From: Thermoplasmata archaeon
GTDB lineage: Archaea; Thermoplasmatota; Thermoplasmata; Halarchaeoplasmatales; Halarchaeoplasmataceae
Direction: 5' to 3'
Length of the DNA: 30,651 nucleotides
Assembly (NCBI GenBank): GCA_019594195.1
Contig: JAFDTP010000010.1
Coordinates: 1 to 30,651 of the forward strand
Below, one piece after another: positions 267 through 30,569 of the stretch (its first letter is position 1; the number at the start of each line of letters is the position of its first letter). The notes beneath the pieces are model-generated. The model was not told the DNA's origin. It did no database searches and saw nothing but the letters and a program-made list of their open reading frames with translations. The position numbers and the translations under genes are program-made.

Positions 267-3200
267 ATGGGTTCTAGTTTGTTTGGAAGTTTAACAGGTG
301 GAAAGAACAACCCCTCTTCAGGCCCCTCGTGGCTAGCAAAACACTGGGATACAACAGTAGTTCTAGTGGGTATATTCATAGTTGCAATTATGGTGAGAGC
401 CTATTTTGCATATGAGACGGCCACAGAATTTGGGCTGCCATATCTTTTAGGAGGAGGAGCTGACTCGCATTATAATGCTAGGATAGTAAATTATATCGCT
501 GAATATAATGAACATCTTTTTGCAGATCCATTGAGAGCTTATCCTCTTGAAGGTTATGTTAACACACGTCCACCTCTCTATCAATGGTCGGTAGTTCTAG
601 GAGGTTACTTGCTTGTTCCATTTGTAGGAAATCTTGACAAAGCTATCAATCTATCTTTCATATTCTCAGCTGCATTCTGGGGCGCACTCACGATCTTCCC
701 GACCTATCTGATAGGGAAGAGGACTTTCGGGAAGAAAGCCGGGATAGCCGGAGCGTTCCTTTTAGCTATCAGCGCTGCACACCTTGAAAGAGGTGTCCTT
801 ACGAATACTAATCACGATGCATTTTCTATGTTCCTGATCGTTACGGCTTTCTTCTTTTTCATGCGTTCTTTAGAGGAGATCAAAACAGATAGGAGATGGG
901 TCTCTGATTGGATGAAACTGGACGCTATCAAAGAAGGCATTTTGGCCTACATGGGCAAAAATAAAAAGAGTATGCTCTATGCTGCCATGACCGGTATAAC
1001 TATCGGGACTATAGCTCTTACATGGAAAGGTTACGCGTACGTGATGGTTATAATACTAGTGTATTTCTTGATCCAATTGCTCGTAGACAAATTTAGAAAA
1101 AGAGACTCTTTGGGCATAACGGTCAACATATTCATAATATTCATGCTGGCCTTCCTTATAGCACTGCCTTGGTATGCCAAGTACAGCCCGGGGATCTTGA
1201 CTAATTGGTTCCAATGGCCACTAGATAGATGGTTCCAAGTTCCGTTCTTGATATTCATAGGGACTTTTGGAGTTGGTGTTTACTTCACCGTTACAAGAGA
1301 CTTGCCTTGGGTACTAACATTTTCGATATTAGGGGCTGCCGGTTTGATTTTCTTCGTTCTTGGTCCGGACATCATACAGACTGCTGCGGCGCAGTACTTT
1401 ATAGACAATAAATTATATGCGACCATCGCAGAAGCACAAGCCCCGATGTTCAGCAGATTGGTTATGGCTGGAGGTGTAGTGACTTTCTTCTTATCCTGGG
1501 TCGGTATCGTTTTCGCTGGATGGCACTTAAGGAAGGAATGGTCCCGTTCATTTATTTTCATTTTAGTTTGGACCGCTTTTGCAATCTACATGGCTACGAC
1601 AGCTACTAGATTCATATTCAATGCGGCTCCAGCGTTCACGCTGACTGCAGGTTGGGTAGTAGCATTGACCTTCGACAAGGCCAACTTTGGAGAGATCTCA
1701 CGATATTTCAGAACACACAGAGGTAGCTTTATAAGAAGTCTAAAAGAAGGAGTCCAGATAAAACATGTTTTGGTTGTTTTATTCGTTGTTTTCCTACTTT
1801 TGACCCCGAATGCTCTTTATGCAGTAGATGCAGGGATACCGTTCGAAGAAAAGGAAAGATACAACAGGCAGATCCATGACGCTTTACCTAGCTTTTTGAG
1901 ACCACCTGAGGAAGAGGGCCAAGAAGGTCATCAATATCTTGGTGCCTTTGGGTATTCGATGGATAAACCGACCGATCATTGGCCTACTGCCTGGAGAGAT
2001 ATCCAGGACCAGAATTCTGGTATACCCCCAGAGGAAAGACCCGCCTTCCTAAGCTGGTGGGACTACGGTTTTGAGGCGATGAATCAAGGAGAGCTGCCCA
2101 CAGTTTCTGACAACTTTCAGCACGCTCATAGGTTTGCCGGTAATTTCTTGATGGCGCAGAACGAATCCGAGATGTTGGGTTTGCTCATCGGAAGACAACT
2201 TCAACTCCCATACAATGAAGAAGGGTCTTTTGAAGGTGATGTCGAGCGGATATTGATAGACCATCTAGGGGAAGAGAAGAAAGAGAAATTAGAAGATATC
2301 TATGACAACCCGGGATCTTATCGTAATGAGGTCTTGAACAATCCTGATCGATACCATCCAAGAGCTGATGATATAGATAATGCCAATGTTAGATGGGCTA
2401 TGGTTATGGGTACTTTATCTTATGAGGACATTGAAACTCTATCCTCTCTCTACAGAGAGATCAGTTATGATTCAGGATATGAAAGGCTGGAGAACAGGAT
2501 AGGTTATTTTGCTGTTGATTCTAGATTGTTCCCGACTTCCGCTCGCGATACAGGTATTTTCCATGCTCCTGCCTTCTTGTCAGGTCACCGTGTACAGGAA
2601 GAAGGCGAAACTCGAGTCCCTGTTGATTTTTACACAATGCAATTCATAGATCAGCAAGGCAGGTCTTATGAGAGTCAAGAAGAGATTCCAGAGGAAGCCC
2701 AAATAGTTGACCAAGAGATAGAGTTCAAAGAGATGTTTTATAATTCCGCATTATACAGGATATTTGCGGGTTATTCCCTTCAAGAAGTCGAGGAGGGAGA
2801 AGGAATACCTGGCATAGATGATCAACAGTCTCCTTCGATGCCCGGATGGAATCTCACACATTTCAGCGAAGTTCATAGAACAGCTTACTTCAATCCTCAT
2901 CCTCAAGACGAGGTACAGAATCATACTGATGCCTGGAGAGCAATGCCTTATCGTGAGGCTATGCAGTATGATCCTGAAGAGGACAATGTCACAGTCGATG
3001 ATACCCCCCGATCATATATGAGTCAGGGTGTGGTTTTCTTAGAGTATAACGATGGTGCCATAGTCGAAGGTCAGGTGAGGACTGAAGACGGCGAACCGGT
3101 ATCAAATGCTAAAGTAACGGTCATCGATACTGAGATCGGTACTCCTCACCATACGACCCGGACAGACTCAGAGGGGCGATACGAAGCGATATTACCTGAA

Positions 3201-6200
3201 GGCGATATGACCGTGACCGTATCTACCGGTGGTTTTGACGATGAACCGATGGGGCGACAGCAGCAGAGAGAACAGATCGCATTAGGCGCTCAAGAGTTCG
3301 AGATAAGTAGAGACCAGGCGATGAGGAGAGAGATAGACAGAACAGGTGATGGACGGTGGGATTATCTCTTAGAAGAGGATATTATTGTAGAGCCCGGACA
3401 GGTCGAGGGCAGGGTATTCCTTGATAGAACCGGCGATGGAGAATATAATCCCGAAAATGATACGCTTGTCTCGAAGGACGGTCATGTGAACCTTATGAAT
3501 GAGCAGTCCGATGTAAATTATAGTGTTGAAATAGAGGAAGGCAATTATAGATTCGATAGCGTAGTTCCGGGTAGATATACTATCGACACGTCAATAGAAG
3601 GGAGTTCTCCTATCGATGGTTTGATAGTAGAACGAGCTCAGCAAACAGATAGGGACATCCCAGTTTCGATGGGCAATCTAACCGTGACCTATGATGGTCA
3701 GCCTCTCGATAGAGAGAGCGTCACTCTTTCTCTCACTGGTGCTGATCAAACTACTGAGTTGACCTTAGGCGAACAAGATTCTCACGAATTTGAAAACTTA
3801 GCACCGGGCACATATACTTTAGAGATCGAAGAGGAAGGCTACACTTTGAAAAATGGCCCACAGGAGATAAGGATCGAACCTGGCGAGAGTCTCACGAGAG
3901 CGGTAACAGTTGTAAAAGCCCATAGGTTAGAAGGTGTGTTGACAAGGGGTGGTGAAGAATTAGCCAACCAGAGATTGAATGTTTTCAGTAAGGAGTACGA
4001 GGCAAGAGACGCGATTGATAGGGATTATGACAGAGATGTAATGACTGATGAAAACGGTGAATTCAGCATAAAATTGCCTCGCGGCGATTATCAACTACAT
4101 GGCGTTAATAGAAGGGACGGAGAAGTCACTGCTTATCTGAATAACATGGTCATTGAATCTGACACTTATATCGAAGGTGAATTCGTTAGTGCCCACAAAC
4201 TACGCGGTACTGCGGAATATGAAGGAGAAAATGTCTCAAGTGCAGAGATCTATATTATGGATGGTTCCGGAAGACAGTATTATCTGACTACAAATGAGAA
4301 TGGCAGATTTAGTACTCATCTACCTGAAGGACGCTACACGGTTTATGGTTGGAATGAACGTGATTTCCAGGACCCAGACGATATAGGAGAAAACCTATAC
4401 TTTTGGAGAGAGATAGGCCTGCATCGAAATAGAGAAATATCTATCGAGGGTTCTCCTGGGCGTTTGATAGAAGGAACTGTATATCGAGAGCAGTTAGGGG
4501 TAACAGATCCTGAACCTGTAGGAGACGGCATCTCAGCTAATATCAAACTATCTGTTAGTGGAAGGACGATACGCACTAGAACCACCATAGACGGTTATTA
4601 CCGCTTCTTCACTCCTGAAAAGGAGACTAGAATGACGATCGAAAAAGAGGGTTATTATCAAAAATCAGTAACATTAGATCCCTCAGAAGTTACCGGTGAT
4701 AGAGACATCTACTTGAGGGCAAAAGATGTCATCGTTGAAGGCGATCTAGATTTTGATAGAGATGAAGAATTGGCTATAGAATTCAGAGCGGTTGATGATG
4801 GTGCGGTTGGAAAGGAAGTTACAGTCGATGGAGATAGTTACAGTGTCGAACTTCAACCAGGACGATATGAAATAGTCAGTGAGCATATGGTGATGGATGG
4901 TGATGCCAAGTATGAGATATCAGATCAACTCACTATCAGACCCGGAGATGAAAATATAGAGCGATCTCTTACTTCAGTATATAAGCTGAGGCTTTTTGGA
5001 GATATACACATCGGGGAGGATCCCGCTGATGCCGAGATACATTTCCAGGGTCCTGAAGAGAAGATGATATACGGTGAAGGATCATATGAGGTCTATCTCG
5101 AAGCAGGTGATTACTCAGTCAGGGCTGTTCATCCCTATGAAAGATACACCATGCAGATGAATTTGACATTAGAGGAGCCTAAAGAAAGAGATATCGCTCT
5201 TGAAGAGGCGGTCCATCTAGACACCCTTATAGATGGACCTGGAGGACATGAGATACCTGTGAGTTTGAGAAATCTAGATACAGGATATATAATAAATACT
5301 GAAACTGATGTTGAAGGAAATCTGGATTTGAATATAACCGGTGGCCCATATGAGATCACAGTGGATTATGTCATTGCTGAAGAGATAGCTGACGAAGAGA
5401 GACAGGTCAGATATCATTTTGAAGGCGAGTACGAGATACCCCCCACTCCAGGAGTAATAAGCTTAGATAGCGAGATATTGAATTCAACATTGAGTGGACA
5501 GGTTTCTCTTAACGGAGGATCTGTTGCAGACCTCAACGTTATAATAAGGTCCGAAGAAGGTCATGAGAGAGTCGAAACGACAGACGAAGATGGGATCTAT
5601 AAATTTGATCAACTTATCCATGGCCGCTACTCAGTCTACATATCTCACGAGACCAGTGGTAGAACATACAGTCATTTTGAGTCTTTTGAGATGCCGGTCG
5701 ATGACAAACAGATGGATATCTCTCTCGAAGAAGGTGTGATATTTTCTGGACGTGTCGAATTAGATGGCGCCGGTGTGCAGACATCTATCAGTTTAACTAG
5801 ACGTGAAGCCAGTCAGGTTTTCGAAACTTCTGAGGATGGCTCTTTCAGGATATTGCTTCCTGAAGATGTCTATCATGTAGAGAGTGAAACGACCGATGAT
5901 AGTCTATATGGTCTGATCGACTATAGATATTCTTCTGAATTGGACATAACCAGCGATATTCAAAGAGACATAGAACTGAGCAAGGTGGAGGAATATGGTA
6001 TGGAGTTCCTCGGTTTGGATAGTAAACACGCTCCTTTAGGTGAAACTATAGAATACGATCTTCATGTAAGAAATACAGGCAACACACCAGACGAGTATGA
6101 GTTATCTGTTGCAGATACCGATTGGGAAGTTAATATAGATCCTGCGATGACCAGTGAGATAATACCAGGCGATCAGAGACAGGTAAGTATGGAGATAACC

Positions 6201-6788
6201 ATACCTGAAGATGCGAAAGTAGGTGAAACCGTAACTTTGAACGCTCGTTCTGTGAACTCAGATGAAGCAATCGAAGAAGAGATCCCCCTAGAGGTAGAAC
6301 AGATCTTCGGCGTGGAGCTATCAGAAGAAACTAGAGACGGGACATATAGGCGTGGTGAGCTCTCCTATTCTTTAGACATCGATAATATGGGGAATGGTCC
6401 TGATTCATTCCAATTGGATATAATGAATAAACAACGACTTAGAGACCAAGGTTGGGAAGTAACCGTTCAGGAACAAACAGAACAGTTAGATTCTGAAGAA
6501 ACTAGTTCTGTGCGGATCTATCTGAATGCGACCAGATCTAATCCAAGACCAAACGTGGAGGTCGAATTGAGGGCCAATTCGCTAGGTGATAATACGGTTT
6601 CAGAGTTGAGAAATATCCAGGCTTCAATACCTCAACTAGTTGCTTATGAAGACTCACTCGCTTTTGAAGGTGAAGAATTCATCATCGAAGATGAACCGTT
6701 CCAACTTAGTAATCTGCAGTGGACTGGTATAATCATACTGGTCGCGATAGCAGTTGTCTTCGTTATGAGGAAAAAGAGGTGGATATGA
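267..6788 (+). CDS. aglB: Giant AglB/STT3-type oligosaccharyltransferase with C-terminal Ig-like array
   Basis: STT3/AglB proteins transfer lipid-linked glycan to Asn in N-x-S/T sequons on the outer face of the membrane. Residues ~25-520 carry many hydrophobic helices, with an acidic loop motif GADSHYN at 64-70 and a second loop motif at 180-186. The WWDYG catalytic signature is at 597-601, in an extracytoplasmic domain running to ~925. What follows is unusual: about ten carboxypeptidase-regulatory/Ig-like beta-sandwich repeats from ~930 to ~1900 (each with a D-x-x-G-x-Y/F turn and PEG-x-Y ending), two NEW3-like domains near 1930 and 2030, and a final membrane helix at ~2152-2168 followed by MRKKRWI. 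Typical AglB proteins have 600-1000 residues; this has 2173. In the second acidic loop the usual D-x-D/H is N182-H-D184. An AGGTGA site supports the start. The stop overlaps the next gene's ATG. Confidence 0.88.
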   Translation: MGSSLFGSLTGGKNNPSSGPSWLAKHWDTTVVLVGIFIVAIMVRAYFAYETATEFGLPYLLGGGADSHYNARIVNYIAEYNEHLFADPLRAYPLEGYVNTRPPLYQWSVVLGGYLLVPFVGNLDKAINLSFIFSAAFWGALTIFPTYLIGKRTFGKKAGIAGAFLLAISAAHLERGVLTNTNHDAFSMFLIVTAFFFFMRSLEEIKTDRRWVSDWMKLDAIKEGILAYMGKNKKSMLYAAMTGITIGTIALTWKGYAYVMVIILVYFLIQLLVDKFRKRDSLGITVNIFIIFMLAFLIALPWYAKYSPGILTNWFQWPLDRWFQVPFLIFIGTFGVGVYFTVTRDLPWVLTFSILGAAGLIFFVLGPDIIQTAAAQYFIDNKLYATIAEAQAPMFSRLVMAGGVVTFFLSWVGIVFAGWHLRKEWSRSFIFILVWTAFAIYMATTATRFIFNAAPAFTLTAGWVVALTFDKANFGEISRYFRTHRGSFIRSLKEGVQIKHVLVVLFVVFLLLTPNALYAVDAGIPFEEKERYNRQIHDALPSFLRPPEEEGQEGHQYLGAFGYSMDKPTDHWPTAWRDIQDQNSGIPPEERPAFLSWWDYGFEAMNQGELPTVSDNFQHAHRFAGNFLMAQNESEMLGLLIGRQLQLPYNEEGSFEGDVERILIDHLGEEKKEKLEDIYDNPGSYRNEVLNNPDRYHPRADDIDNANVRWAMVMGTLSYEDIETLSSLYREISYDSGYERLENRIGYFAVDSRLFPTSARDTGIFHAPAFLSGHRVQEEGETRVPVDFYTMQFIDQQGRSYESQEEIPEEAQIVDQEIEFKEMFYNSALYRIFAGYSLQEVEEGEGIPGIDDQQSPSMPGWNLTHFSEVHRTAYFNPHPQDEVQNHTDAWRAMPYREAMQYDPEEDNVTVDDTPRSYMSQGVVFLEYNDGAIVEGQVRTEDGEPVSNAKVTVIDTEIGTPHHTTRTDSEGRYEAILPEGDMTVTVSTGGFDDEPMGRQQQREQIALGAQEFEISRDQAMRREIDRTGDGRWDYLLEEDIIVEPGQVEGRVFLDRTGDGEYNPENDTLVSKDGHVNLMNEQSDVNYSVEIEEGNYRFDSVVPGRYTIDTSIEGSSPIDGLIVERAQQTDRDIPVSMGNLTVTYDGQPLDRESVTLSLTGADQTTELTLGEQDSHEFENLAPGTYTLEIEEEGYTLKNGPQEIRIEPGESLTRAVTVVKAHRLEGVLTRGGEELANQRLNVFSKEYEARDAIDRDYDRDVMTDENGEFSIKLPRGDYQLHGVNRRDGEVTAYLNNMVIESDTYIEGEFVSAHKLRGTAEYEGENVSSAEIYIMDGSGRQYYLTTNENGRFSTHLPEGRYTVYGWNERDFQDPDDIGENLYFWREIGLHRNREISIEGSPGRLIEGTVYREQLGVTDPEPVGDGISANIKLSVSGRTIRTRTTIDGYYRFFTPEKETRMTIEKEGYYQKSVTLDPSEVTGDRDIYLRAKDVIVEGDLDFDRDEELAIEFRAVDDGAVGKEVTVDGDSYSVELQPGRYEIVSEHMVMDGDAKYEISDQLTIRPGDENIERSLTSVYKLRLFGDIHIGEDPADAEIHFQGPEEKMIYGEGSYEVYLEAGDYSVRAVHPYERYTMQMNLTLEEPKERDIALEEAVHLDTLIDGPGGHEIPVSLRNLDTGYIINTETDVEGNLDLNITGGPYEITVDYVIAEEIADEERQVRYHFEGEYEIPPTPGVISLDSEILNSTLSGQVSLNGGSVADLNVIIRSEEGHERVETTDEDGIYKFDQLIHGRYSVYISHETSGRTYSHFESFEMPVDDKQMDISLEEGVIFSGRVELDGAGVQTSISLTRREASQVFETSEDGSFRILLPEDVYHVESETTDDSLYGLIDYRYSSELDITSDIQRDIELSKVEEYGMEFLGLDSKHAPLGETIEYDLHVRNTGNTPDEYELSVADTDWEVNIDPAMTSEIIPGDQRQVSMEITIPEDAKVGETVTLNARSVNSDEAIEEEIPLEVEQIFGVELSEETRDGTYRRGELSYSLDIDNMGNGPDSFQLDIMNKQRLRDQGWEVTVQEQTEQLDSEETSSVRIYLNATRSNPRPNVEVELRANSLGDNTVSELRNIQASIPQLVAYEDSLAFEGEEFIIEDEPFQLSNLQWTGIIILVAIAVVFVMRKKRWI

Positions 6789-13992: not shown

Positions 13993-14913
13993 ATGGTTGA
14001 AGAGGAAGAATCCTCCGGGGACACCAGTCCTGCATTGAAAGAAAAATTGAAAAAGTTAGAGGGCGAAGTAGATAAACCCACTCAGATCACCCGTATCAAA
14101 AGATTGAAAGAACTGCAGGATAAACTAGAAGGGACTCATGAGATCGATAGGATAAAGAAAGTAAAGAAAAAATTGATCATCCCCCAGATAGTGGGTATTT
14201 TTATATTGTTCCCTTTTCTCCTCTACCTGAATGGAGCCTCTCAAGATCCTCTTTATTTTCCCCTTTATTATCCCATACTGATGCTCTTTGGATGGATATT
14301 GATCCTCATCGTAGAATCTTTCGTTTTCAGGGTCATGAGGATAAAGAGACACCGGAGTAAAAGCACAAAATACATTTTAGCAAAAAAATCCATGAAGAAG
14401 TCTCTAAGTTTTATGGTTATAGCCTTGATAATATTTGGAGTCATTTACACTCCTTTCCTGACCGATAGTATCAATGACCGCCTGTCAATCGAGGATGGGC
14501 GTATCGACGTTGAAGAAGCGGACGATAGATATGAAGCCCGATTTGAATTTGATGAGCTAGGAGTTTTTTCATTGAGTGGAGTGAAGAACTTGACTATAAG
14601 GCCGCATGAACATGATACTCAAATATTTTATACACTTTATGAGATCGGTGGTGATGAGCAGCAGAGTGGTGTGTTGAGAGAAAACGATGGCACACATTTC
14701 GAATTCGATAATGATGATTTCAGAAAATGGGTCATCAGGATCGAGTCTGATGACCGATTTTCATTAGAATATGAAAAAAGGATCGAATTGCTTGAAGACA
14801 AGATGAAGGGCTTTTCGATACTATCATTTTTCTACGTAGGTATATTCCTTCAATGGCCTGCGATACTCTATCCTATCAGGCAGAAGTACACTGGCAAAGG
14901 CATATATCGTTAG
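13993..14913 (+). CDS. Four-helix membrane protein of unknown function
   Basis: I do not recognise a family. The 306-residue product has a charged, coiled-coil-like N-terminus (~14-60, rich in Lys, Glu and Leu). Two membrane helices lie at ~61-79 and 88-112, a basic loop follows, and a third helix is at ~136-158. Residues ~160-275 form an acidic beta-rich domain, probably outside, and a last helix is at ~281-298. It starts 28 bases after priS on the same strand, so it is probably co-transcribed, but nothing links it to replication. Its end overlaps the stop of the opposing radical SAM gene by four bases. Confidence 0.65.
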   Translation: MVEEEESSGDTSPALKEKLKKLEGEVDKPTQITRIKRLKELQDKLEGTHEIDRIKKVKKKLIIPQIVGIFILFPFLLYLNGASQDPLYFPLYYPILMLFGWILILIVESFVFRVMRIKRHRSKSTKYILAKKSMKKSLSFMVIALIIFGVIYTPFLTDSINDRLSIEDGRIDVEEADDRYEARFEFDELGVFSLSGVKNLTIRPHEHDTQIFYTLYEIGGDEQQSGVLRENDGTHFEFDNDDFRKWVIRIESDDRFSLEYEKRIELLEDKMKGFSILSFFYVGIFLQWPAILYPIRQKYTGKGIYR

Positions 14914-15710
14914 ATCACACAGCACTTTTGGATACGTTTTACTTCGAAATTCTCTTTTGCCCATCTAAAAGTCTTTTTGGAAGGTAGCACTATACCTATA
15001 GCCCCCTGCTTCAGCGCTTGGATCTCCAGATCGTTCCTTCTTCTCTCTCTCATACAGCCCAACACGATATCAGTAGACTCGTCGATATGGTCCATCACTT
15101 GAATGAAATCCTCTTTTGAAACTCTTTTCCCGAAATCGTTCGGGATGAGTGTATTCAAAACTATCTTTTCTGGCTTGTCTAACAAGTCTATCGCTTTCAT
15201 CTCACCATCGAGTTCTCCTTCGTTCAATCCTACAGTTATGTGAGGTGAAACTTTGATACCCTTGTTTTTCAGAAGTCTGTATCCCTCTTTGTAATCTTCC
15301 GGTGTTGCATCTAAACCATAGATCTTTTCTATCGTTTGCTTAGATCCTATCATGTCGTATGAAACAGCGTCGATCCCAGAATCTGCCAAGCCTTCGATCA
15401 TCTTTTCAGAAGATAAACCTGTGTGGACATTTATAGATAGCTGAGTTGTCTGATCTATCTTAGAGAGTTTTTTTAGATATTTTTCGATCGGAACTCTACC
15501 TTTCTCTGTACAACCCCCGCTCAGTAGGAAACCATTGCCGCCAGATTCATCTAATTCTAAAGCAAAATCATAAAGTTCATCGGGGCCGGATACGTGGACC
15601 ATCCTCTCTAAAAATCTTCCATCGCAGTGAGGACAGGAGAGAGCACACTCTTTTCCAGTGACCGAAATACTCGGGAATTTTTTTCCGGGGTAGTAAAATT
15701 TCTTCATCAT
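14910..15710 (-). CDS. Radical SAM protein (biotin-synthase-like, COG1856-type)
   Basis: This 266-residue protein has the CxxxCxxC motif at C22, C26 and C29, which binds the 4Fe-4S cluster that cleaves S-adenosylmethionine. LLSGGC at about 62-67 is the glycine-rich SAM-binding strand, and a TIM-barrel-like rest follows. It ends with cysteines at 263-264 (QKCCVI), which could ligate a second cluster. Length and the GCMRERRR plus late Cys-Cys features suggest the uncharacterised archaeal COG1856 group. A role in sulfur insertion is possible but unproven. I start at the ATG at 15710; a TTG at 15719 also lies in frame. A TATA-like element at 15731-15740 supports a leaderless start there. Confidence 0.8.
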   Translation of the reverse strand: MMKKFYYPGKKFPSISVTGKECALSCPHCDGRFLERMVHVSGPDELYDFALELDESGGNGFLLSGGCTEKGRVPIEKYLKKLSKIDQTTQLSINVHTGLSSEKMIEGLADSGIDAVSYDMIGSKQTIEKIYGLDATPEDYKEGYRLLKNKGIKVSPHITVGLNEGELDGEMKAIDLLDKPEKIVLNTLIPNDFGKRVSKEDFIQVMDHIDESTDIVLGCMRERRRNDLEIQALKQGAIGIVLPSKKTFRWAKENFEVKRIQKCCVI

Positions 15711-15730
15711 CAAAATCAATGATATGGGAC

Positions 15731-16087: not shown

Positions 16088-16393
16088 ATGATGGTTGTAG
16101 GCGACGATAGACAGAGGTATATCGCTTTCGTGATAAAGGGAGCGAAGACCGATAGGAGAGGTATGATCGATGCTATCAGAGGACAGTTTTCAAGGGAAGA
16201 ATACGATGCGATAGAACCTTGGTTGACCGTATTTGAAGGAGATAGAGGTATAGTTAGATGTAATCATACAGGTAAAGATAAAGCAATAGAGATCTTGAAC
16301 AGGATAGAGATCAGTGGTGGCGAAGTAAGGACCGTTGTTACAAGTGGCAGTATAAAAAAGGCAAAGAAGGTTTTGAAAGATCATGATCGATGA
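16088..16393 (+). CDS. rnp2: RNase P protein component 2 (Pop5)
   Basis: The 101-residue product matches archaeal Pop5/Rnp2, which with Rnp3 activates the catalytic domain of RNase P RNA during tRNA 5' maturation. Supporting parts are RYIAFVIKGAKTDRRGMIDAI near the N-terminus, the GIVRCNHTGKDKAIEIL core (~55-71), and a C-terminal VVTSGSIKKAKK segment that fits the family's SGTIK-like motif. It is the first gene of a tight three-gene operon; its end overlaps the next start by 11 bases. Confidence 0.88.
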   Translation: MMVVGDDRQRYIAFVIKGAKTDRRGMIDAIRGQFSREEYDAIEPWLTVFEGDRGIVRCNHTGKDKAIEILNRIEISGGEVRTVVTSGSIKKAKKVLKDHDR

Positions 16394-18029
16394 AAGATGG
16401 AAAAAACCGGTAGATAGAAGAGAAAAAGTGGATATCCTAGTTTTAGACGGTTATGTAGACGAGCCAGGACTGTTGGGTGTTCCTCCTTATCTTTCCCCTG
16501 AACCTAGGATGTTAGTCGGTGTTGCAAGGGAATTAGACCTGACCTGGGAATACATAACAGCAGATGAGTACAGGGAATATGGAATACCCTTAGGAGATAT
16601 CATCCTGGTACATGGTGGTGTTACAGTCCCGGGTAAATATCTTGGCGGGACCCCTCTGACAGTGGAAGAGGCGGAGGATATAACTGATGAACCTGGAGAG
16701 ACCTTTTTAGGAGGGCCATTAGCTAGATATGAGGATGTAGAGGGATATGACCATTATGCTACCAAGGACCTTGCAGCCTATTTCTATGACTCTCTTTTCG
16801 GCGAAGGCGAGGACAGATGGGCCCAGCCCGAAGAGATCGAGGACTGGCTCAAATATGGTCATAAAGTGGTCGAAAGACATCCGCTTTATCCTGACCCCCT
16901 TTTATTAGAGATGACCGCTTACAGAGGATGTCCACGATATTTTACAGGAGGATGTTCTTTTTGTTCAGAACCCGCTTACGGTGAACCAGAATTTCGAGAT
17001 CAACATGATATAATAGAGGAATTTGAACTTCTTCATGAGAAAGGAATAAAGTACTTTCGTCTAGGCGGACAATCCTGCACTGTCAGTTACAAGGCAGAAG
17101 GGATAGGTGAAAAAGAAGTTCCGATGCCCCGGCCGAAAGAAGTCGAGAGGCTGTTCAGAGGTATAAATGAGGCGTGCCCAGGGATCGAAGTTCTCCATAT
17201 TGATAATGCTAATCCTGCCGTTATTGCTGAACACCCTGAAAGGAGCAGAGAGATCTTAAAGAGCCTAGTGGAGTATACCACTTCAGGAAACGTTCTAGCC
17301 CTGGGTATGGAATCGGCAGACGAAGAAGTGATAGAAAAAAACAATCTGAATTCAAATCCTCTGCTAGTGAGGAAAGCCGTGCGGATGATCAATGAAGTCG
17401 GAAGCGAAAGAGGTTCGAACGGTATGCCCGAACTTCTCCCCGGGCTCAATTTTTTGGGCGGTTTGAAAGGGGAGACAAGAGAAACATACGATAAAAACTA
17501 TAGCTTTTTAGAGGAACTGCTGGATGAAGGTCTTCTTTTGAGGAGGATAAACATACGTCAAGTACTTTCTCATGATGATAGCGATTTTGAATTGAGGTAT
17601 AAAAATGATTTCAAGCGGTTCAAGAAGAAAGTGAGAGAGAAAATCGACAACCCGATGTTGGAAAGACTACTTCCTCCTGGTACCGTTCTAAAAGACGTCT
17701 TTATGGAGAAGATCGATAGCAACGTTACTTTTGGTCGTCAGATAGGGACCTATCCTTTGTTGGTCGGTGTTGAATATGAACTGGATCTGCATGAGTACTA
17801 CGACGTGTTGATCACTGATCACGGACATAGGAGCGTTACTGGAGTCCACTGTCCTTTCTACGTTTCCGATGCTTCCTTTTCACAGCTTCAAAAGATCCCC
17901 GGGATCGGTAAAAAAAGAGCGGCTACGATATTCAGGAAAGCTCCTAAGAATGAAAAAGAGCTAAAAAAACTGATCGAAAACGATGAAAGTTTAAAAGAGA
18001 TATTGAGATTTGTAGATTTCAAGGAGTGA
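16383..18029 (+). CDS. Radical SAM protein with C-terminal HhH (COG1031-type)
   Basis: This 548-residue protein has an N-terminal domain of ~180 residues resembling a B12-binding-like fold. A radical SAM core follows with unusual cluster spacing, C183-x7-C191-x2-C194 in RGCPRYFTGGCSFC, then the FRLGGQSC and LALGME strands. A helix-hairpin-helix lies near 502-517 (LQKIPGIGKKRAATIF), suggesting nucleic acid binding. The architecture matches COG1031, a conserved archaeal family with no role known to me. Coupling to RNase P Pop5 (11-base overlap) and to a UPF0282 hydrolase four bases downstream suggests RNA-linked chemistry, such as tRNA modification. That is inference. Confidence 0.85.
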   Translation: MIDERWKKPVDRREKVDILVLDGYVDEPGLLGVPPYLSPEPRMLVGVARELDLTWEYITADEYREYGIPLGDIILVHGGVTVPGKYLGGTPLTVEEAEDITDEPGETFLGGPLARYEDVEGYDHYATKDLAAYFYDSLFGEGEDRWAQPEEIEDWLKYGHKVVERHPLYPDPLLLEMTAYRGCPRYFTGGCSFCSEPAYGEPEFRDQHDIIEEFELLHEKGIKYFRLGGQSCTVSYKAEGIGEKEVPMPRPKEVERLFRGINEACPGIEVLHIDNANPAVIAEHPERSREILKSLVEYTTSGNVLALGMESADEEVIEKNNLNSNPLLVRKAVRMINEVGSERGSNGMPELLPGLNFLGGLKGETRETYDKNYSFLEELLDEGLLLRRINIRQVLSHDDSDFELRYKNDFKRFKKKVREKIDNPMLERLLPPGTVLKDVFMEKIDSNVTFGRQIGTYPLLVGVEYELDLHEYYDVLITDHGHRSVTGVHCPFYVSDASFSQLQKIPGIGKKRAATIFRKAPKNEKELKKLIENDESLKEILRFVDFKE

Positions 18030-27816: not shown

Positions 27817-28380
27817 TCAGTAATCATTTAAGTCTCTCATTTCGAATTTTTTCTCTACTTCGGTTTTCGTTCTTTTCATATATTTCTTAGGCATGTTTTT
27901 ATTGAATAGCTCCTTGTTCTTTCTATTCTCAGAGTACTGGCTCTTGTAATAGGTTTCCCAAAGCTTTGTCAAATCTATCTCTTCCTCCAGCTCAAAATAT
28001 TCCTTCAACTCTTTCAACGTTGTTTCAAGAGGATCTCCTTTCTCATTTGATATGCCTTTCTCGGTATAGATCGATACCCAACTCTCCCTTTCGTTACCAA
28101 GAACTATGATGTACCCAGGGAATCTTTTTGCGAACCAATCTGCTACCATGAAACCTATATCATGTTCTGGCTTCATGTAGCCACATTTCACTTTTTCACC
28201 TAACTGTTTGAATCTAACGAACCCTTTCATCTTGTGTATCTCTCTACCGGTTTCTCTGATCAATTTTCTTATATGGATTATATCGTCTCTTTTCGCAGTT
28301 TCCAGTCTATCATCATCTATATTTTTAGCCAACTGGATATCATTTTTTTCGGTGTTTTCATTCGCCTTCAACAACTCCAT
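27817..28380 (-). CDS. DUF4130-like putative DNA metabolism protein
   Basis: The product has about 187 residues from the ATG at 28380. The central segment REIHKMKGFVRF, then KCGYMKPEHDIGFMVADWF and KRFPGYIIVLGNERESWVSIY, matches the DUF4130 domain (the TIGR03915-type partner of an rSAM/HhH protein). The tail (~130-187) has LWETYYKSQYSENRKNKE, also typical. The N-terminus seems shorter than in bacterial homologues, which start with a Y-D-G-S-F-E-G-like segment. The stop of the upstream radical SAM gene is 15 bases before this ATG; in-frame TTG (28431) and GTG (28407) starts inside that gene would overlap it. Function unproven. In bacteria the domain is often fused to a uracil-DNA glycosylase-like domain; here it stands alone. 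Confidence 0.78.
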   Translation of the reverse strand: MELLKANENTEKNDIQLAKNIDDDRLETAKRDDIIHIRKLIRETGREIHKMKGFVRFKQLGEKVKCGYMKPEHDIGFMVADWFAKRFPGYIIVLGNERESWVSIYTEKGISNEKGDPLETTLKELKEYFELEEEIDLTKLWETYYKSQYSENRKNKELFNKNMPKKYMKRTKTEVEKKFEMRDLNDY

Positions 28381-28394
28381 TTTTCTTTTACTTA

Positions 28395-29618
28395 TCAACT
28401 CGACCACCTGTCTAGAGTTGAATGCTTCCAACCGTTCACTTTCAGAAACGTTCTAGCTCTTTTGAGAACGACTCCCAATTTAGAGAGCTCACTCCACTTT
28501 GTGATATCCTCCTCCTCTCTAGATTTCACTATCCTTCCAGCGCTTTTAGGACCGATCCCTGGAACTCTTATCAATCTATCATATGAAGCTTCATTCGGAT
28601 CGACTGGCTCCTCTAATTCCTTCTGAGCGATCTCCATCTTAGGATCTCCATCTGGAAGAAAACCCTCCTCATCGAAAGCAAGGGTTATCTCGCTGGGATC
28701 TAAGTCGTAGACTCTGAAGAGCCAGTCGGTTTGATACAGTCGATGTTCTCTAGAGTTGGGCACGTCTTCTCTATCATCTAGGCCCGTGCCTTCTACCGGA
28801 GTGAATGACGAGTAATACATCCTTTTGATGTCCATCCTTCTGTATTCTCTTATCATACTCTCAAATATCTCCTTGTCACTCTCTCCCGCTCCACCTACTA
28901 TCGTTTGAGTTGTGTGTCCCGCGGGAAGATCCTTCTTTTCCATCAGATCTCTGATGTATCGCTGCCTCCGAAGTATGTCGTAGTCGTAATGCTTCGTAGA
29001 ACTCACTTCATGGAGTCTGCTCTTTGAACACGATTCGATATTCAGACTCAGTCTATCCGCATATTCTAAACTCCTTTTGATGTAATCCTTGTCAGTTCCC
29101 GGTAAGATCTTCAGATGTATGTAACCCTCGTAATTATATTCTTTTCTCAAAATACGGACCGTTTCGATCAATTTTTCCATGATTATATCTTCATCCTTAC
29201 CCGTACCGGAACTGAGGAAAAGCCCTTCTACATAATTGCCTTGGTAAAGAGAGAGCGTAATATCCGCAAGTTCTTTTGGAGTGTAAGAATAAGTCTTACC
29301 TTTGCTCGAACAGTCATCTGAGTTTGGACAGTAACTGCAGTCGTGAGAACATTCGTTCGTGAACAGAGTCTTGAAAAGACTGATACATCTGCCGTCAGGA
29401 GTGAAAGAGTGGCAGATCCCTCCTCTAGAAGTATTGCCTATCTTCTGAAGTCCTTTTACCATTCTAGGTGTAGCGGTGGAGGCGCAGACGTCGTGTTTCG
29501 TTCCCGCTCCTAGTGTTTGTACCTTGTTCAGATCTAACTCGTCCCAGTTTTTCCTGGGAGTAGAAACGTCGAATTCGCTCTCTTCTGCAAGATGGGCGAT
29601 CTTTTCTAGATTTGCCAT
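28395..29618 (-). CDS. Radical SAM/HhH protein, putative DNA repair or modification enzyme
   Basis: This 407-residue protein matches the TIGR03916/COG4277 type. The radical SAM cluster is C90-x3-C94-x2-C97 (NECSHDCSYC). Extra cysteines at C45, C69, C78 and C103 could hold another cluster. The family blocks CHSFTPDGRCISLFKTLFTN (~69-88), GLFLSSG and LKILPG are visible, and a helix-hairpin-helix, LIRVPGIGPKSAGRIV, at ~349-364 suggests DNA binding. The family is nearly always next to DUF4130 genes, as here. Genome annotators call it putative DNA repair/modification; I know of no shown reaction. A TATA box at 29642-29650 gives a leaderless mRNA from the ATG at 29618. Confidence 0.88.
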   Translation of the reverse strand: MANLEKIAHLAEESEFDVSTPRKNWDELDLNKVQTLGAGTKHDVCASTATPRMVKGLQKIGNTSRGGICHSFTPDGRCISLFKTLFTNECSHDCSYCPNSDDCSSKGKTYSYTPKELADITLSLYQGNYVEGLFLSSGTGKDEDIIMEKLIETVRILRKEYNYEGYIHLKILPGTDKDYIKRSLEYADRLSLNIESCSKSRLHEVSSTKHYDYDILRRQRYIRDLMEKKDLPAGHTTQTIVGGAGESDKEIFESMIREYRRMDIKRMYYSSFTPVEGTGLDDREDVPNSREHRLYQTDWLFRVYDLDPSEITLAFDEEGFLPDGDPKMEIAQKELEEPVDPNEASYDRLIRVPGIGPKSAGRIVKSREEEDITKWSELSKLGVVLKRARTFLKVNGWKHSTLDRWSS

Positions 29619-29641
29619 CTAAGTCCATCAATCGCTGAGAA

Positions 29642-29650
29642 CATATAAGC
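29642..29650 (-). promoter_or_regulatory. TATA box of the rSAM-DUF4130 operon
   Basis: Minus-strand GCTTATATG is about 28 bases before the ATG at 29618. Confidence 0.5.
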
Positions 29651-29678
29651 ATTTCATAGGGAGGTCAGTAAAAGTAGA

Positions 29679-29687
29679 CTTTATAAT
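29679..29687 (+). promoter_or_regulatory. TATA box of the SPL-like gene
   Basis: CTTTATAAT lies about 29 bases before the ATG at 29712, implying a leaderless or very short leader. Confidence 0.6.
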
Positions 29688-29711
29688 CCACCCTTTCAGT
29701 AGATTTTCTAG

Positions 29712-30569
29712 ATGGACGTAATAAACGAATTCGACCCGTGGGACAGCGAGATGTGCACCTGTCCCGAAAAATACTCGCTGAATCCCTACACCGGCTGTGG
29801 ACACAGGTGCATCTACTGCTATTCGACTTATATTCCTAACTTTTTCGAACCCAGGAGGAAGAAGAACGTTGTTGAGAGAGTGAAAAAAGACGTTAAAAAG
29901 ATCCCTGAAGGATCTCTGATCTCTATTTCTAACTCTTCAGATCCTTATATTCCAAAGGATGAAGAACATGGGGACACGAGAGAGATTCTCAAAATCTTAA
30001 AGAAGGAGGATATGAAAGTTCTAGTGGTTACTAAAGGTGTGCACGTTAGAAGAGATATAGATGTTCTAAAGAAGATGCATTCTGCCGTGACTATCAGTAT
30101 ATCAACACTGAAAGAAGATATACAAGAAAAATTGGAACCTAACGCTCCCTCTCCTCGAACAAGATTGGACTTGGTGAAAAGTCTTGCTGTGGAAGGTATT
30201 TCAGTGGGAGTTCGTTTCGATCCGATATTTCCTGAACTTACTGAGAGCGAGATACCCCGTGTAGTTAGAAAAGTGGAGGAAGCGGGAGCGGAACATATTG
30301 TCTCAAGCACATTCAAACCTAGAGGGGATAGTTGGAAAAGATTCAAGTTAGCTTTTCCTGAGATAGCCGAAGATTTAGAAGAGCTTTATTTTGAAGAGGG
30401 GGAGAAGATCGACAACAGTTATTATGTTCCCGAAGAAAAGCGAAAAGAGATATTGGGAACTGTTGCAAAAGAGTGTGAAGAGAACGATATACCATTTGCA
30501 ACTTGTAGAGAAGACCTTCCAAGCTTGAAAACTTCTGCTTCATGCGACGGGAGCCATCTCTTAAAATGA
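29712..30569 (+). CDS. Radical SAM protein, spore photoproduct lyase-like (SplB family)
   Basis: The 285-residue product has C29-x3-C33-x2-C36 in GCGHRCIYCYSTY, the usual SplB-type cluster motif followed by the YCYS aromatic signature. LISISNSSDPY (~68-78), VLVVTKG, AVTISISTL and GVRFDPIFPELTE (~163-175) follow. The end CDGSHLLK matches other archaeal COG1533 proteins. True SPL repairs the spore photoproduct in DNA; most archaeal members have no tested substrate. It shares a 93-base divergent promoter region with the rSAM-DUF4130 operon, hinting at joint use in nucleic acid repair. After its TGA the frame stays open to the window end (see findings). Confidence 0.85.
   Translation: MDVINEFDPWDSEMCTCPEKYSLNPYTGCGHRCIYCYSTYIPNFFEPRRKKNVVERVKKDVKKIPEGSLISISNSSDPYIPKDEEHGDTREILKILKKEDMKVLVVTKGVHVRRDIDVLKKMHSAVTISISTLKEDIQEKLEPNAPSPRTRLDLVKSLAVEGISVGVRFDPIFPELTESEIPRVVRKVEEAGAEHIVSSTFKPRGDSWKRFKLAFPEIAEDLEELYFEEGEKIDNSYYVPEEKRKEILGTVAKECEENDIPFATCREDLPSLKTSASCDGSHLLK

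What the first reader, a model, noticed from the sequence alone, without database searches (positions are those of the whole stretch)
27817..30569. Putative DNA repair/modification island: rSAM/HhH + DUF4130, divergent from an SPL-like radical SAM enzyme
Seen: 28395-29618 has a CxxxCxxC radical SAM core plus a C-terminal HhH and four extra cysteines. 27817-28380 has the DUF4130 core. A third gene, SplB-like, starts 93 bases away on the other strand, and both sides have good TATA boxes. Known: the rSAM and DUF4130 families occur as a pair and are labelled putative DNA repair/modification, in bacteria often with a uracil-glycosylase-like domain. I know of no shown reaction. Inference: the archaeal version lacks the fused glycosylase domain, and the adjacent SPL-like radical enzyme may add a second damage-reversal activity. 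If the three genes stay together in relatives, this is a compact radical-based system acting on DNA.
Basis: partly seen in the sequence, partly recalled or inferred. Interest (0 to 1): 0.72.

Follow-up and report, generated by a model that had tools for sequence, protein, structure and literature searches.

The report
Clamp-docked radical SAM DNA-repair pair
A salt-lake archaeon carries a known but unexplained pair of predicted DNA-repair proteins beside a third radical enzyme; protein tails suggest that the pair rides on the DNA sliding clamp, while the third gene was found beside it only in one small archaeal group.

Summary
The three genes are real and placed as described. The pair (TIGR03916 radical SAM/HhH plus DUF4130) is a known, named, uncharacterised pair; this archaeal variant lacks the UdgX domain and the bacterial DUF4130 N-terminal region. 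The third gene is SplB-like but far below the spore photoproduct lyase cut-off (27 against 400 bits), with Asn at the usual SPL H-donor Cys position in 27 of 27 aligned sequences. The three-gene link is local: present in 4 of 4 pair-bearing genomes of one order of halophilic Thermoplasmatota, absent in 3 of 3 other Thermoplasmatota pair loci and 12 of 12 bacterial plasmid loci read. The carriers fit a single gain or loss. New here: bacterial radical SAM members end in a sliding-clamp (DnaN) motif (119 of 120 listed; 12 of 12 varied loci counting variants), though 91 of the 119 have Leu, not the consensus Phe, last. Archaeal members lack that tail and end in a PCNA-box-like tail (8 of 8); so do 6 of 9 archaeal DUF4130 proteins, and no other of 371 archaeal ORFs, by a pattern chosen after seeing them. 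Seven of those 8 lack the box's Gln. Best reading: a clamp-docked radical enzyme pair acting on a DNA lesion, the SplB-like gene being a clade-specific companion.

The parts
27817..28431 (-). DUF4130 protein (likely start TTG 28398; ATG 28380 also possible); no UDG/UdgX domain found; C-terminus ...RDLNDY is PCNA-box-like only by a loose pattern
   Evidence: PF13566 92.3 bits; TIGR03915 positions 100-238 only, below curated cut-off; conserved residues E64 H66 F71 R73 P88 R103 W158 N172 in 16 or 17 of 17
28395..29618 (-). TIGR03916 radical SAM protein with C-terminal HhH; CX3CX2C C90/C94/C97 plus C45, C69, C78; C-terminus ...HSTLDRWSS
   Evidence: 345.1 bits, cut-off 343.5; HHH_3; cysteines in 17 of 17
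28395..28398 (-). four-base stop/start overlap TTGA of the pair (start inferred)
   Evidence: sequence; length of P0001
28395..28427 (-). codons (with stop) for the PCNA-box-like tail of the radical SAM protein
   Evidence: tails of 8 of 8 archaeal members
29619..29711 (.). 93-base divergent intergenic region with TATA-like stretches on both sides and a conserved block around 29657-29678
   Evidence: alignment of 5 loci; exact pattern site 29663-29678
29712..30569 (+). SplB-like radical SAM protein (COG1533-type, name recalled); CX3CX2C C29/C33/C36, conserved C15, C17, C265, C278
   Evidence: Radical_SAM; 27.4 bits to TIGR04070 SPL, cut-off 400; these cysteines in 27 of 27

Best explanation
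The pair is a sliding-clamp-docked, two-protein radical SAM enzyme that acts on DNA. Shown (as sequence facts): family membership, conserved cluster cysteines, the HhH, the close spacing of the two genes, and the clamp-motif tails. Inferred: the HhH and a C-terminal clamp motif (DnaN motif in bacteria, PCNA-box-like in archaea) bring the enzyme to DNA near the fork; the CX3CX2C cluster cleaves SAM; C45/C69/C78 hold a second Fe-S cluster; DUF4130 holds the damaged strand or base; the reaction reverses or trims a pyrimidine-type lesion. In the proteobacterial loci read, the DUF4130 protein also carries UdgX, a uracil-excising, self-crosslinking domain; here a separate UDG-like protein encoded elsewhere in the genome would remove uracil. 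The divergent SplB-like gene is a second radical enzyme that joined the pair, most simply once, in these halophilic Thermoplasmatota, and is probably controlled with it.
For: Family scores. Three extra Cys in 17 of 17 members. Bacterial radical SAM tails: Q-[LM]-x-L-[FL] in the last 25 residues of 119 of 120 listed proteins (the other ends QLSVL), none in 46,238 body residues; 28 of the 119 end in F, 91 in L. Of 12 varied plasmid loci, 12 show a form of it: 7 ending in F (QLSIF, QLSLF, QLKLF, QLSLF, QLEMF, QLALF, QLSLF), 4 in L, and QLILPF in L062 (tails printed); the script's regex met 9 of 107 ORFs called in these loci, all 9 the radical SAM protein (it missed L060 and L062 by pattern, and L064 probably because a longer overlapping ORF replaced it). 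Clamp consensus QL[S/D]LF or QxxLF, and a tight-binding QLSLPL peptide, from passages of PMC12309361. Archaeal tails: [STK]L[DERK]x[FYW] in the last 12 residues of 14 of 371 ORFs, namely 8 of 8 radical SAM and 6 of 9 DUF4130 proteins, nothing else. Archaeal PCNA boxes of three named species lie at the very C-terminus (passage of PMC6881253). FEN1 of six pair-bearing genomes ends QTSLTSF, QTSLSSF, QTSLSSF, QSSLLSFD, QKSLDSWF, QKSIDAWF (the seventh, G087, is a fragment), the same L-x-x-aromatic spacing. UdgX-named partner in 6 of 9 annotated bacterial loci. Predicted LexA control of splB and of COG1573-COG4277 in Bacteroidetes (passages of PMC8565304). The three genes stay together in 4 of 4 pair genomes of the order.
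Against: No reaction is known to me for either protein. Most bacterial tails (91 of 119) end in Leu where the consensus has Phe; QxxLL clamp motifs such as that of E. coli MutS are known to me only by recall. The 120 proteins are the top of a capped list and, where named, mostly Rhizobiales and Rhodobacterales. The archaeal tails lack the box's Gln in 7 of 8 radical SAM proteins; the pattern was set after seeing them, the proteins are related, and part of the tail (G-W...L) aligns with a non-terminal stretch of alphaproteobacterial members, so it may be fold, not docking peptide. A looser pattern ([STK] then L-x-x-aromatic, last 12) meets 24 of 371 ORFs, 10 of them other proteins. The window's own DUF4130 and those of L016 and L017 miss the strict pattern. 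No complex could be predicted. The SplB-like gene is not linked to the pair in any locus read outside one order.
Confidence: 0.5

Rival explanations
1. The three genes form one functional radical DNA-repair system, the first reader's view: the SplB-like enzyme does a second damage-reversal step for the pair.
For: SplB-like close orthologues (68-75%) in 4 of 4 pair-bearing and 0 of 12 pair-less genomes of the order, while the nearby MBL-rhodanese gene is in 12 of 16. A block of the intergenic region aligns in 5 loci. The three stay together although the MMPL gene is missing in G001 and the genes beyond SplB differ in the three relatives where they can be read. Equal longest-contig lengths suggest that 7 of 24 listed DUF4130 proteins share a contig with an SplB-like protein, the window, G001 and G003 among them (compared with 26 of the 120 listed SplB-like proteins; inference from length alone). 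In the same genomes a second SplB-like paralogue overlaps an Nre gene in 4 of 4 regions read, and NreB-SplB adjacency is described in PMC4929162 (section 5).
Against: No SplB-like gene in the regions read around 3 of 3 other Thermoplasmatota pair loci and 12 of 12 bacterial loci. The carriers need only one change on the rhodanese tree (support 85/90, below the tool's star mark). 35 of 36 phylum genomes with an SplB-like relative have no DUF4130 match.
Confidence: 0.25
2. The pair makes a DNA modification (a changed base) rather than repairing damage.
For: NCBI's name says modification/repair. PMC3765255 says the associated enzymes might modify thymines (passage). The radical SAM model's best solved-structure matches are lipoyl synthase and viperin.
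Against: Predicted LexA control of the bacterial pair and fusion to UdgX point to damage. The model behind the structure match is poor (pLDDT 67.0), and its matches may show only a radical SAM barrel.
Confidence: 0.2
3. The pair handles DNA-protein or interstrand crosslinks, for example those that UdgX forms with AP sites.
For: UdgX bonds covalently to AP-DNA after uracil excision (abstract of PMC10359453 as started in the listing) and is joined to DUF4130 in the proteobacterial loci read. PMC4929162 speculates that archaeal SplB-like enzymes repair crosslinks.
Against: The archaeal pair proteins and the Bacillota, Bacteroidota and Fusobacteriota ones read here have no UdgX part, so the pair does not need it in the same protein.
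Confidence: 0.15

Closest known systems
TIGR03916 / TIGR03915 pair (putative DNA modification/repair radical SAM protein with DUF4130)
   Same: Gene order, CX3CX2C, three extra Cys, C-terminal HhH, core DUF4130 residues
   Different: The archaeal members read lack most of the bacterial DUF4130 N-terminal region and any UdgX part, and have a PCNA-box-like tail in place of the DnaN-type motif
DUF4130-UdgX protein of proteobacteria
   Same: DUF4130 core beside the radical SAM gene
   Different: No UDG domain here; UDG-like proteins below the TIGR03914 cut-off lie elsewhere in 4 of 4 pair genomes of the order and 7 of its 12 others
Spore photoproduct lyase (SplB, TIGR04070)
   Same: Radical SAM domain and a weak profile match (E 0.0016 to 4rh0)
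   Different: 27.4 against 400 bits; Asn in 27 of 27 at the SPL C140/C141 position; extra conserved Cys
Archaeal NreB-SplB neighbourhood
   Same: An SplB-like gene beside a repair gene with a clamp link, as discussed in PMC4929162
   Different: The partner here is the radical SAM/DUF4130 pair; the Nre-linked SplB is a separate paralogue in the same genomes

Membership tests
TIGR03916 radical SAM | score over curated cut-off | tested here: met
   345.1 against 343.5 bits
TIGR03916 radical SAM | CX3CX2C motif and C-terminal HhH | tested here: met
   C90/C94/C97 in 17 of 17; HHH_3
DUF4130 (PF13566) | score over gathering cut-off | tested here: met
   92.3 against 27 bits
TIGR03915 equivalog | score over curated cut-off, full length | tested here: not met
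   93.6 against 112.25 bits; profile positions 100-238 of 243
UdgX (TIGR03914) fusion | UDG domain on the DUF4130 protein | tested here: not met
   only DUF4130/TIGR03915 matched
Spore photoproduct lyase (TIGR04070) | score over curated cut-off | tested here: not met
   27.4 against 400 bits
Spore photoproduct lyase (TIGR04070) | H-donor cysteine (C141 in B. subtilis, C140 in Geobacillus) | tested here: inconclusive
   Asn in 27 of 27 at that position, but the alignment is weak and the Clostridium acetobutylicum enzyme uses a Cys elsewhere (PMC5368176 passages)
PCNA-interacting (PIP) box, radical SAM tail | hydrophobic residue at 4, aromatic at 7, at the C-terminus | tested here: met
   8 of 8 archaeal radical SAM proteins; the aromatic is Trp, while the definition in PMC4929162 names Phe and Tyr
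PCNA-interacting (PIP) box, radical SAM tail | Gln at position 1 | tested here: not met
   Gln in 1 of 8 (L017), not in the window
PCNA-interacting (PIP) box, radical SAM tail | binding to PCNA | not testable with these tools
   needs a binding assay
DHHA1-type fold for DUF4130 | structural match well above background | tested here: inconclusive

The most novel reading that the evidence does not exclude
A radical SAM/DUF4130 DNA-repair machine is docked to the replication sliding clamp in both Bacteria and Archaea, with the docking peptide exchanged to suit each domain's clamp, both archaeal subunits carrying one, and with a non-SPL SplB-like enzyme recruited as a third component in halophilic Thermoplasmatota.
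Probability: 0.3. Interest if true: 0.75.

Novelty: new variant of a known kind. Interest (0 to 1): 0.45.

Why it matters
The radical SAM family is large (8,000 of the 8,000 candidates scored matched, a capped number), and I found no shown reaction for it. A clamp-binding tail would place it at the replication fork and give a direct binding and genetic test in ordinary laboratory bacteria. It would also give archaeal SplB-like enzymes, whose substrate PMC4929162 calls unknown, a second repair setting besides Nre.

Tried and rejected
A regulon for the intergenic block: GGTCANTGAAAGTAGA with up to 2 mismatches gave 65 matches in 7 genomes against 57 for the backward control (sums), so none is shown; the exact matches there were two, both at this locus (G398, G003), G001's site has one mismatch and G002's was not found. 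In the window, up to 3 mismatches gave one match against 2.08 expected.

A repair neighbourhood for the wider SplB-like family: 29 loci with about 1.5 kb flanks showed mixed neighbours and neither pair gene. The phylum search scored at most 6 candidates a genome, so its 36 may be low.

Solved structures by sequence: nothing convincing for DUF4130, only an HhH protein below E 0.001 for the radical SAM sequence; its profile adds HydE at E about 0.005. DHHA1 was not among the families that 17 DUF4130 proteins matched in Pfam at E up to 10. The radical SAM model is too poor (67.0; residues 38-71 and 88-108 under 50) to place C45/C69/C78.

Literature: searches returned no paper that I could see joins these families to a clamp. 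One search listed PMC11459621, which holds both 'UdgX' and 'sliding clamp' once each, and one search listed PMC4549789; I read neither.

Rows left out: of 158 plasmid records with the radical SAM gene, 12 were read, chosen for varied genera from the 60 listed; L067 ends soon after the gene and L064 about 4 kb after the match. In L062 DUF4130 is annotated but tblastn did not find it. Of 12 bacterial radical SAM proteins 9 were in the alignment A2. Of 319 SplB-like proteins 120 were listed and 26 aligned. G254 (DUF4130 without the radical SAM gene) and G014 (weak match, 19.4 bits) were not counted as pairs.
Full report
What is there. The window's 3' end holds three genes as described: DUF4130 (27817-28431, likely start 28398) and radical SAM/HhH (28395-29618) on the minus strand, and an SplB-like radical SAM gene (29712-30569) on the plus strand. 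The first two belong to DUF4130/TIGR03915 and TIGR03916. The radical SAM protein just passes its curated cut-off; the DUF4130 protein passes Pfam's but not NCBI's, and matches only from profile position 100 on. The three relatives found in genome contigs are Thermoplasmatota MAGs (record titles; that the sites are the Great Salt Lake and soda-lake sediment is my reading of the isolate names), and 'Natronoplasma' is among the names.

Is the three-gene link general? DUF4130 occurs in 6 of 389 sampled Thermoplasmatota (5 over cut-off) and in 4 of the 16 genomes held of the window's order. Those four carry the radical SAM gene and the divergent SplB-like gene. A close SplB-like orthologue (68-75%) is in those 4 and in none of the other 12; of these, 9 have only a 28-37% relative and 3 no match. 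The nearby MBL-rhodanese gene is in 12 of 16; in G001 it stands directly beside DUF4130 because the MMPL gene is missing there, and beyond the SplB-like gene the neighbours differ in the three relatives where they can be read. On a tree of that gene (12 of the 16 genomes plus the window) the carriers need one change, support 85/90, one side of a branch in 82% of bootstrap trees; the perfect co-occurrence may therefore be one event. Outside the order, 3 of 3 Thermoplasmatota pair loci (L017-L019) show no SplB-like gene in the regions read, nor do 12 of 12 bacterial plasmid loci within 5 kb or to the record's end (tblastn at E 1e-4). In the phylum sample 36 of 389 genomes have an SplB-like relative at E <= 1e-50 and only G001 has both. 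So far as read, the link is specific to this order. A block in the middle of the intergenic region aligns in 5 loci, which hints at joint control; no wider regulon is shown.

What the SplB-like gene is. It scores best with PA0069- and Rv2578c-type radical SAM models, though far below their cut-offs, and 27.4 bits with SPL. A profile of 27 sequences reaches solved SPL at E 0.0016, and there the SPL H-donor position (Ala or Ser in those entries; my count of the printed alignment) faces N74, Asn in 27 of 27. SPL of C. acetobutylicum uses a Cys elsewhere (PMC5368176 passages), so a lyase reaction is not excluded. C15, C17, C265 and C278, Cys in 27 of 27, hint at another metal site (inference). In 4 of 4 regions read, the second SplB-like paralogue of the pair-bearing genomes overlaps an Nre gene (PF04894/PF04895), the neighbourhood described in PMC4929162 (section 5 read); those Nre proteins end ...RHWN, with no clear PIP box at the end.

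What the pair is. In the bacterial loci read the partner is a stand-alone DUF4130 protein (Bacillota, Bacteroidota, Fusobacteriota) or one with UdgX (proteobacteria). C45, C69 and C78 are Cys in 17 of 17. The tails are the most telling feature. Bacterial radical SAM proteins end in a DnaN-type clamp motif in 119 of 120 listed proteins, 28 ending in F and 91 in L, and in some form in 12 of 12 varied loci. Archaeal ones lack that extension and end in xTLDRW-like tails (8 of 8). A strict pattern finds 14 of 371 archaeal ORFs, all of them radical SAM (8) or DUF4130 (6 of 9); L-x-x-aromatic with polar middle residues in the last 10 finds 18, 15 of them from these two families, the window's DUF4130 included; a loose third pattern finds 24, 14 of them from the two families. 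FEN1 of six pair-bearing genomes shows the same spacing, with Gln. Against this: Gln is missing in 7 of 8, the patterns were post hoc, the sequences are related, part of the tail aligns with non-terminal residues of bacterial members, and most bacterial motifs have Leu where the quoted consensus has Phe. I hold the bacterial clamp motif as likely and the archaeal box as plausible.

Known work. One search for the family names returned two papers, both seen by passages: PMC3765255 calls DUF4130 a predicted mutagenesis-related enzyme associated with SplB-like photolyases and UDGs, which might modify thymines; PMC8565304 predicts LexA control of splB and of COG1573-COG4277. The passages that I saw do not mention the sliding clamp. 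A tie of DUF4130 to SplB and to damage was thus already proposed; the clamp tails, the archaeal variant and the limits of the three-gene link are what this work adds, as far as these searches show.

Noticed in passing
L020:9094-10011 (G254): A 305-aa protein with a C-terminal DUF4130 and no radical SAM partner in the region read, ending ...VTLDDFPA, PCNA-box-like.
   Followed up: partly
window 16383-18029: Another radical SAM protein with an HhH motif (548 aa), weakly like B12-type radical SAM models, conserved in related genomes; no curated family reached.
   Followed up: no
window 14910-15719: LipS1-family lipoyl synthase, over the curated cut-off (237.6 against 230 bits).
   Followed up: no
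L056-L059: A second SplB-like paralogue overlaps an Nre gene in 4 of 4 regions read.
   Followed up: partly
window 267-6788: A 2173-aa protein joining an STT3-like N-terminus to repeated carboxypeptidase-regulatory-like and other beta-sandwich domains.
   Followed up: no
L016:14929-15576: In G398 the gene beyond the SplB-like gene encodes an RNase H with a topoisomerase-type zinc ribbon.
   Followed up: no
phage records H61-H70: The radical SAM gene has matches in 10 of 50,697 phage records, mostly unannotated faecal contigs; they may be host DNA.
   Followed up: no
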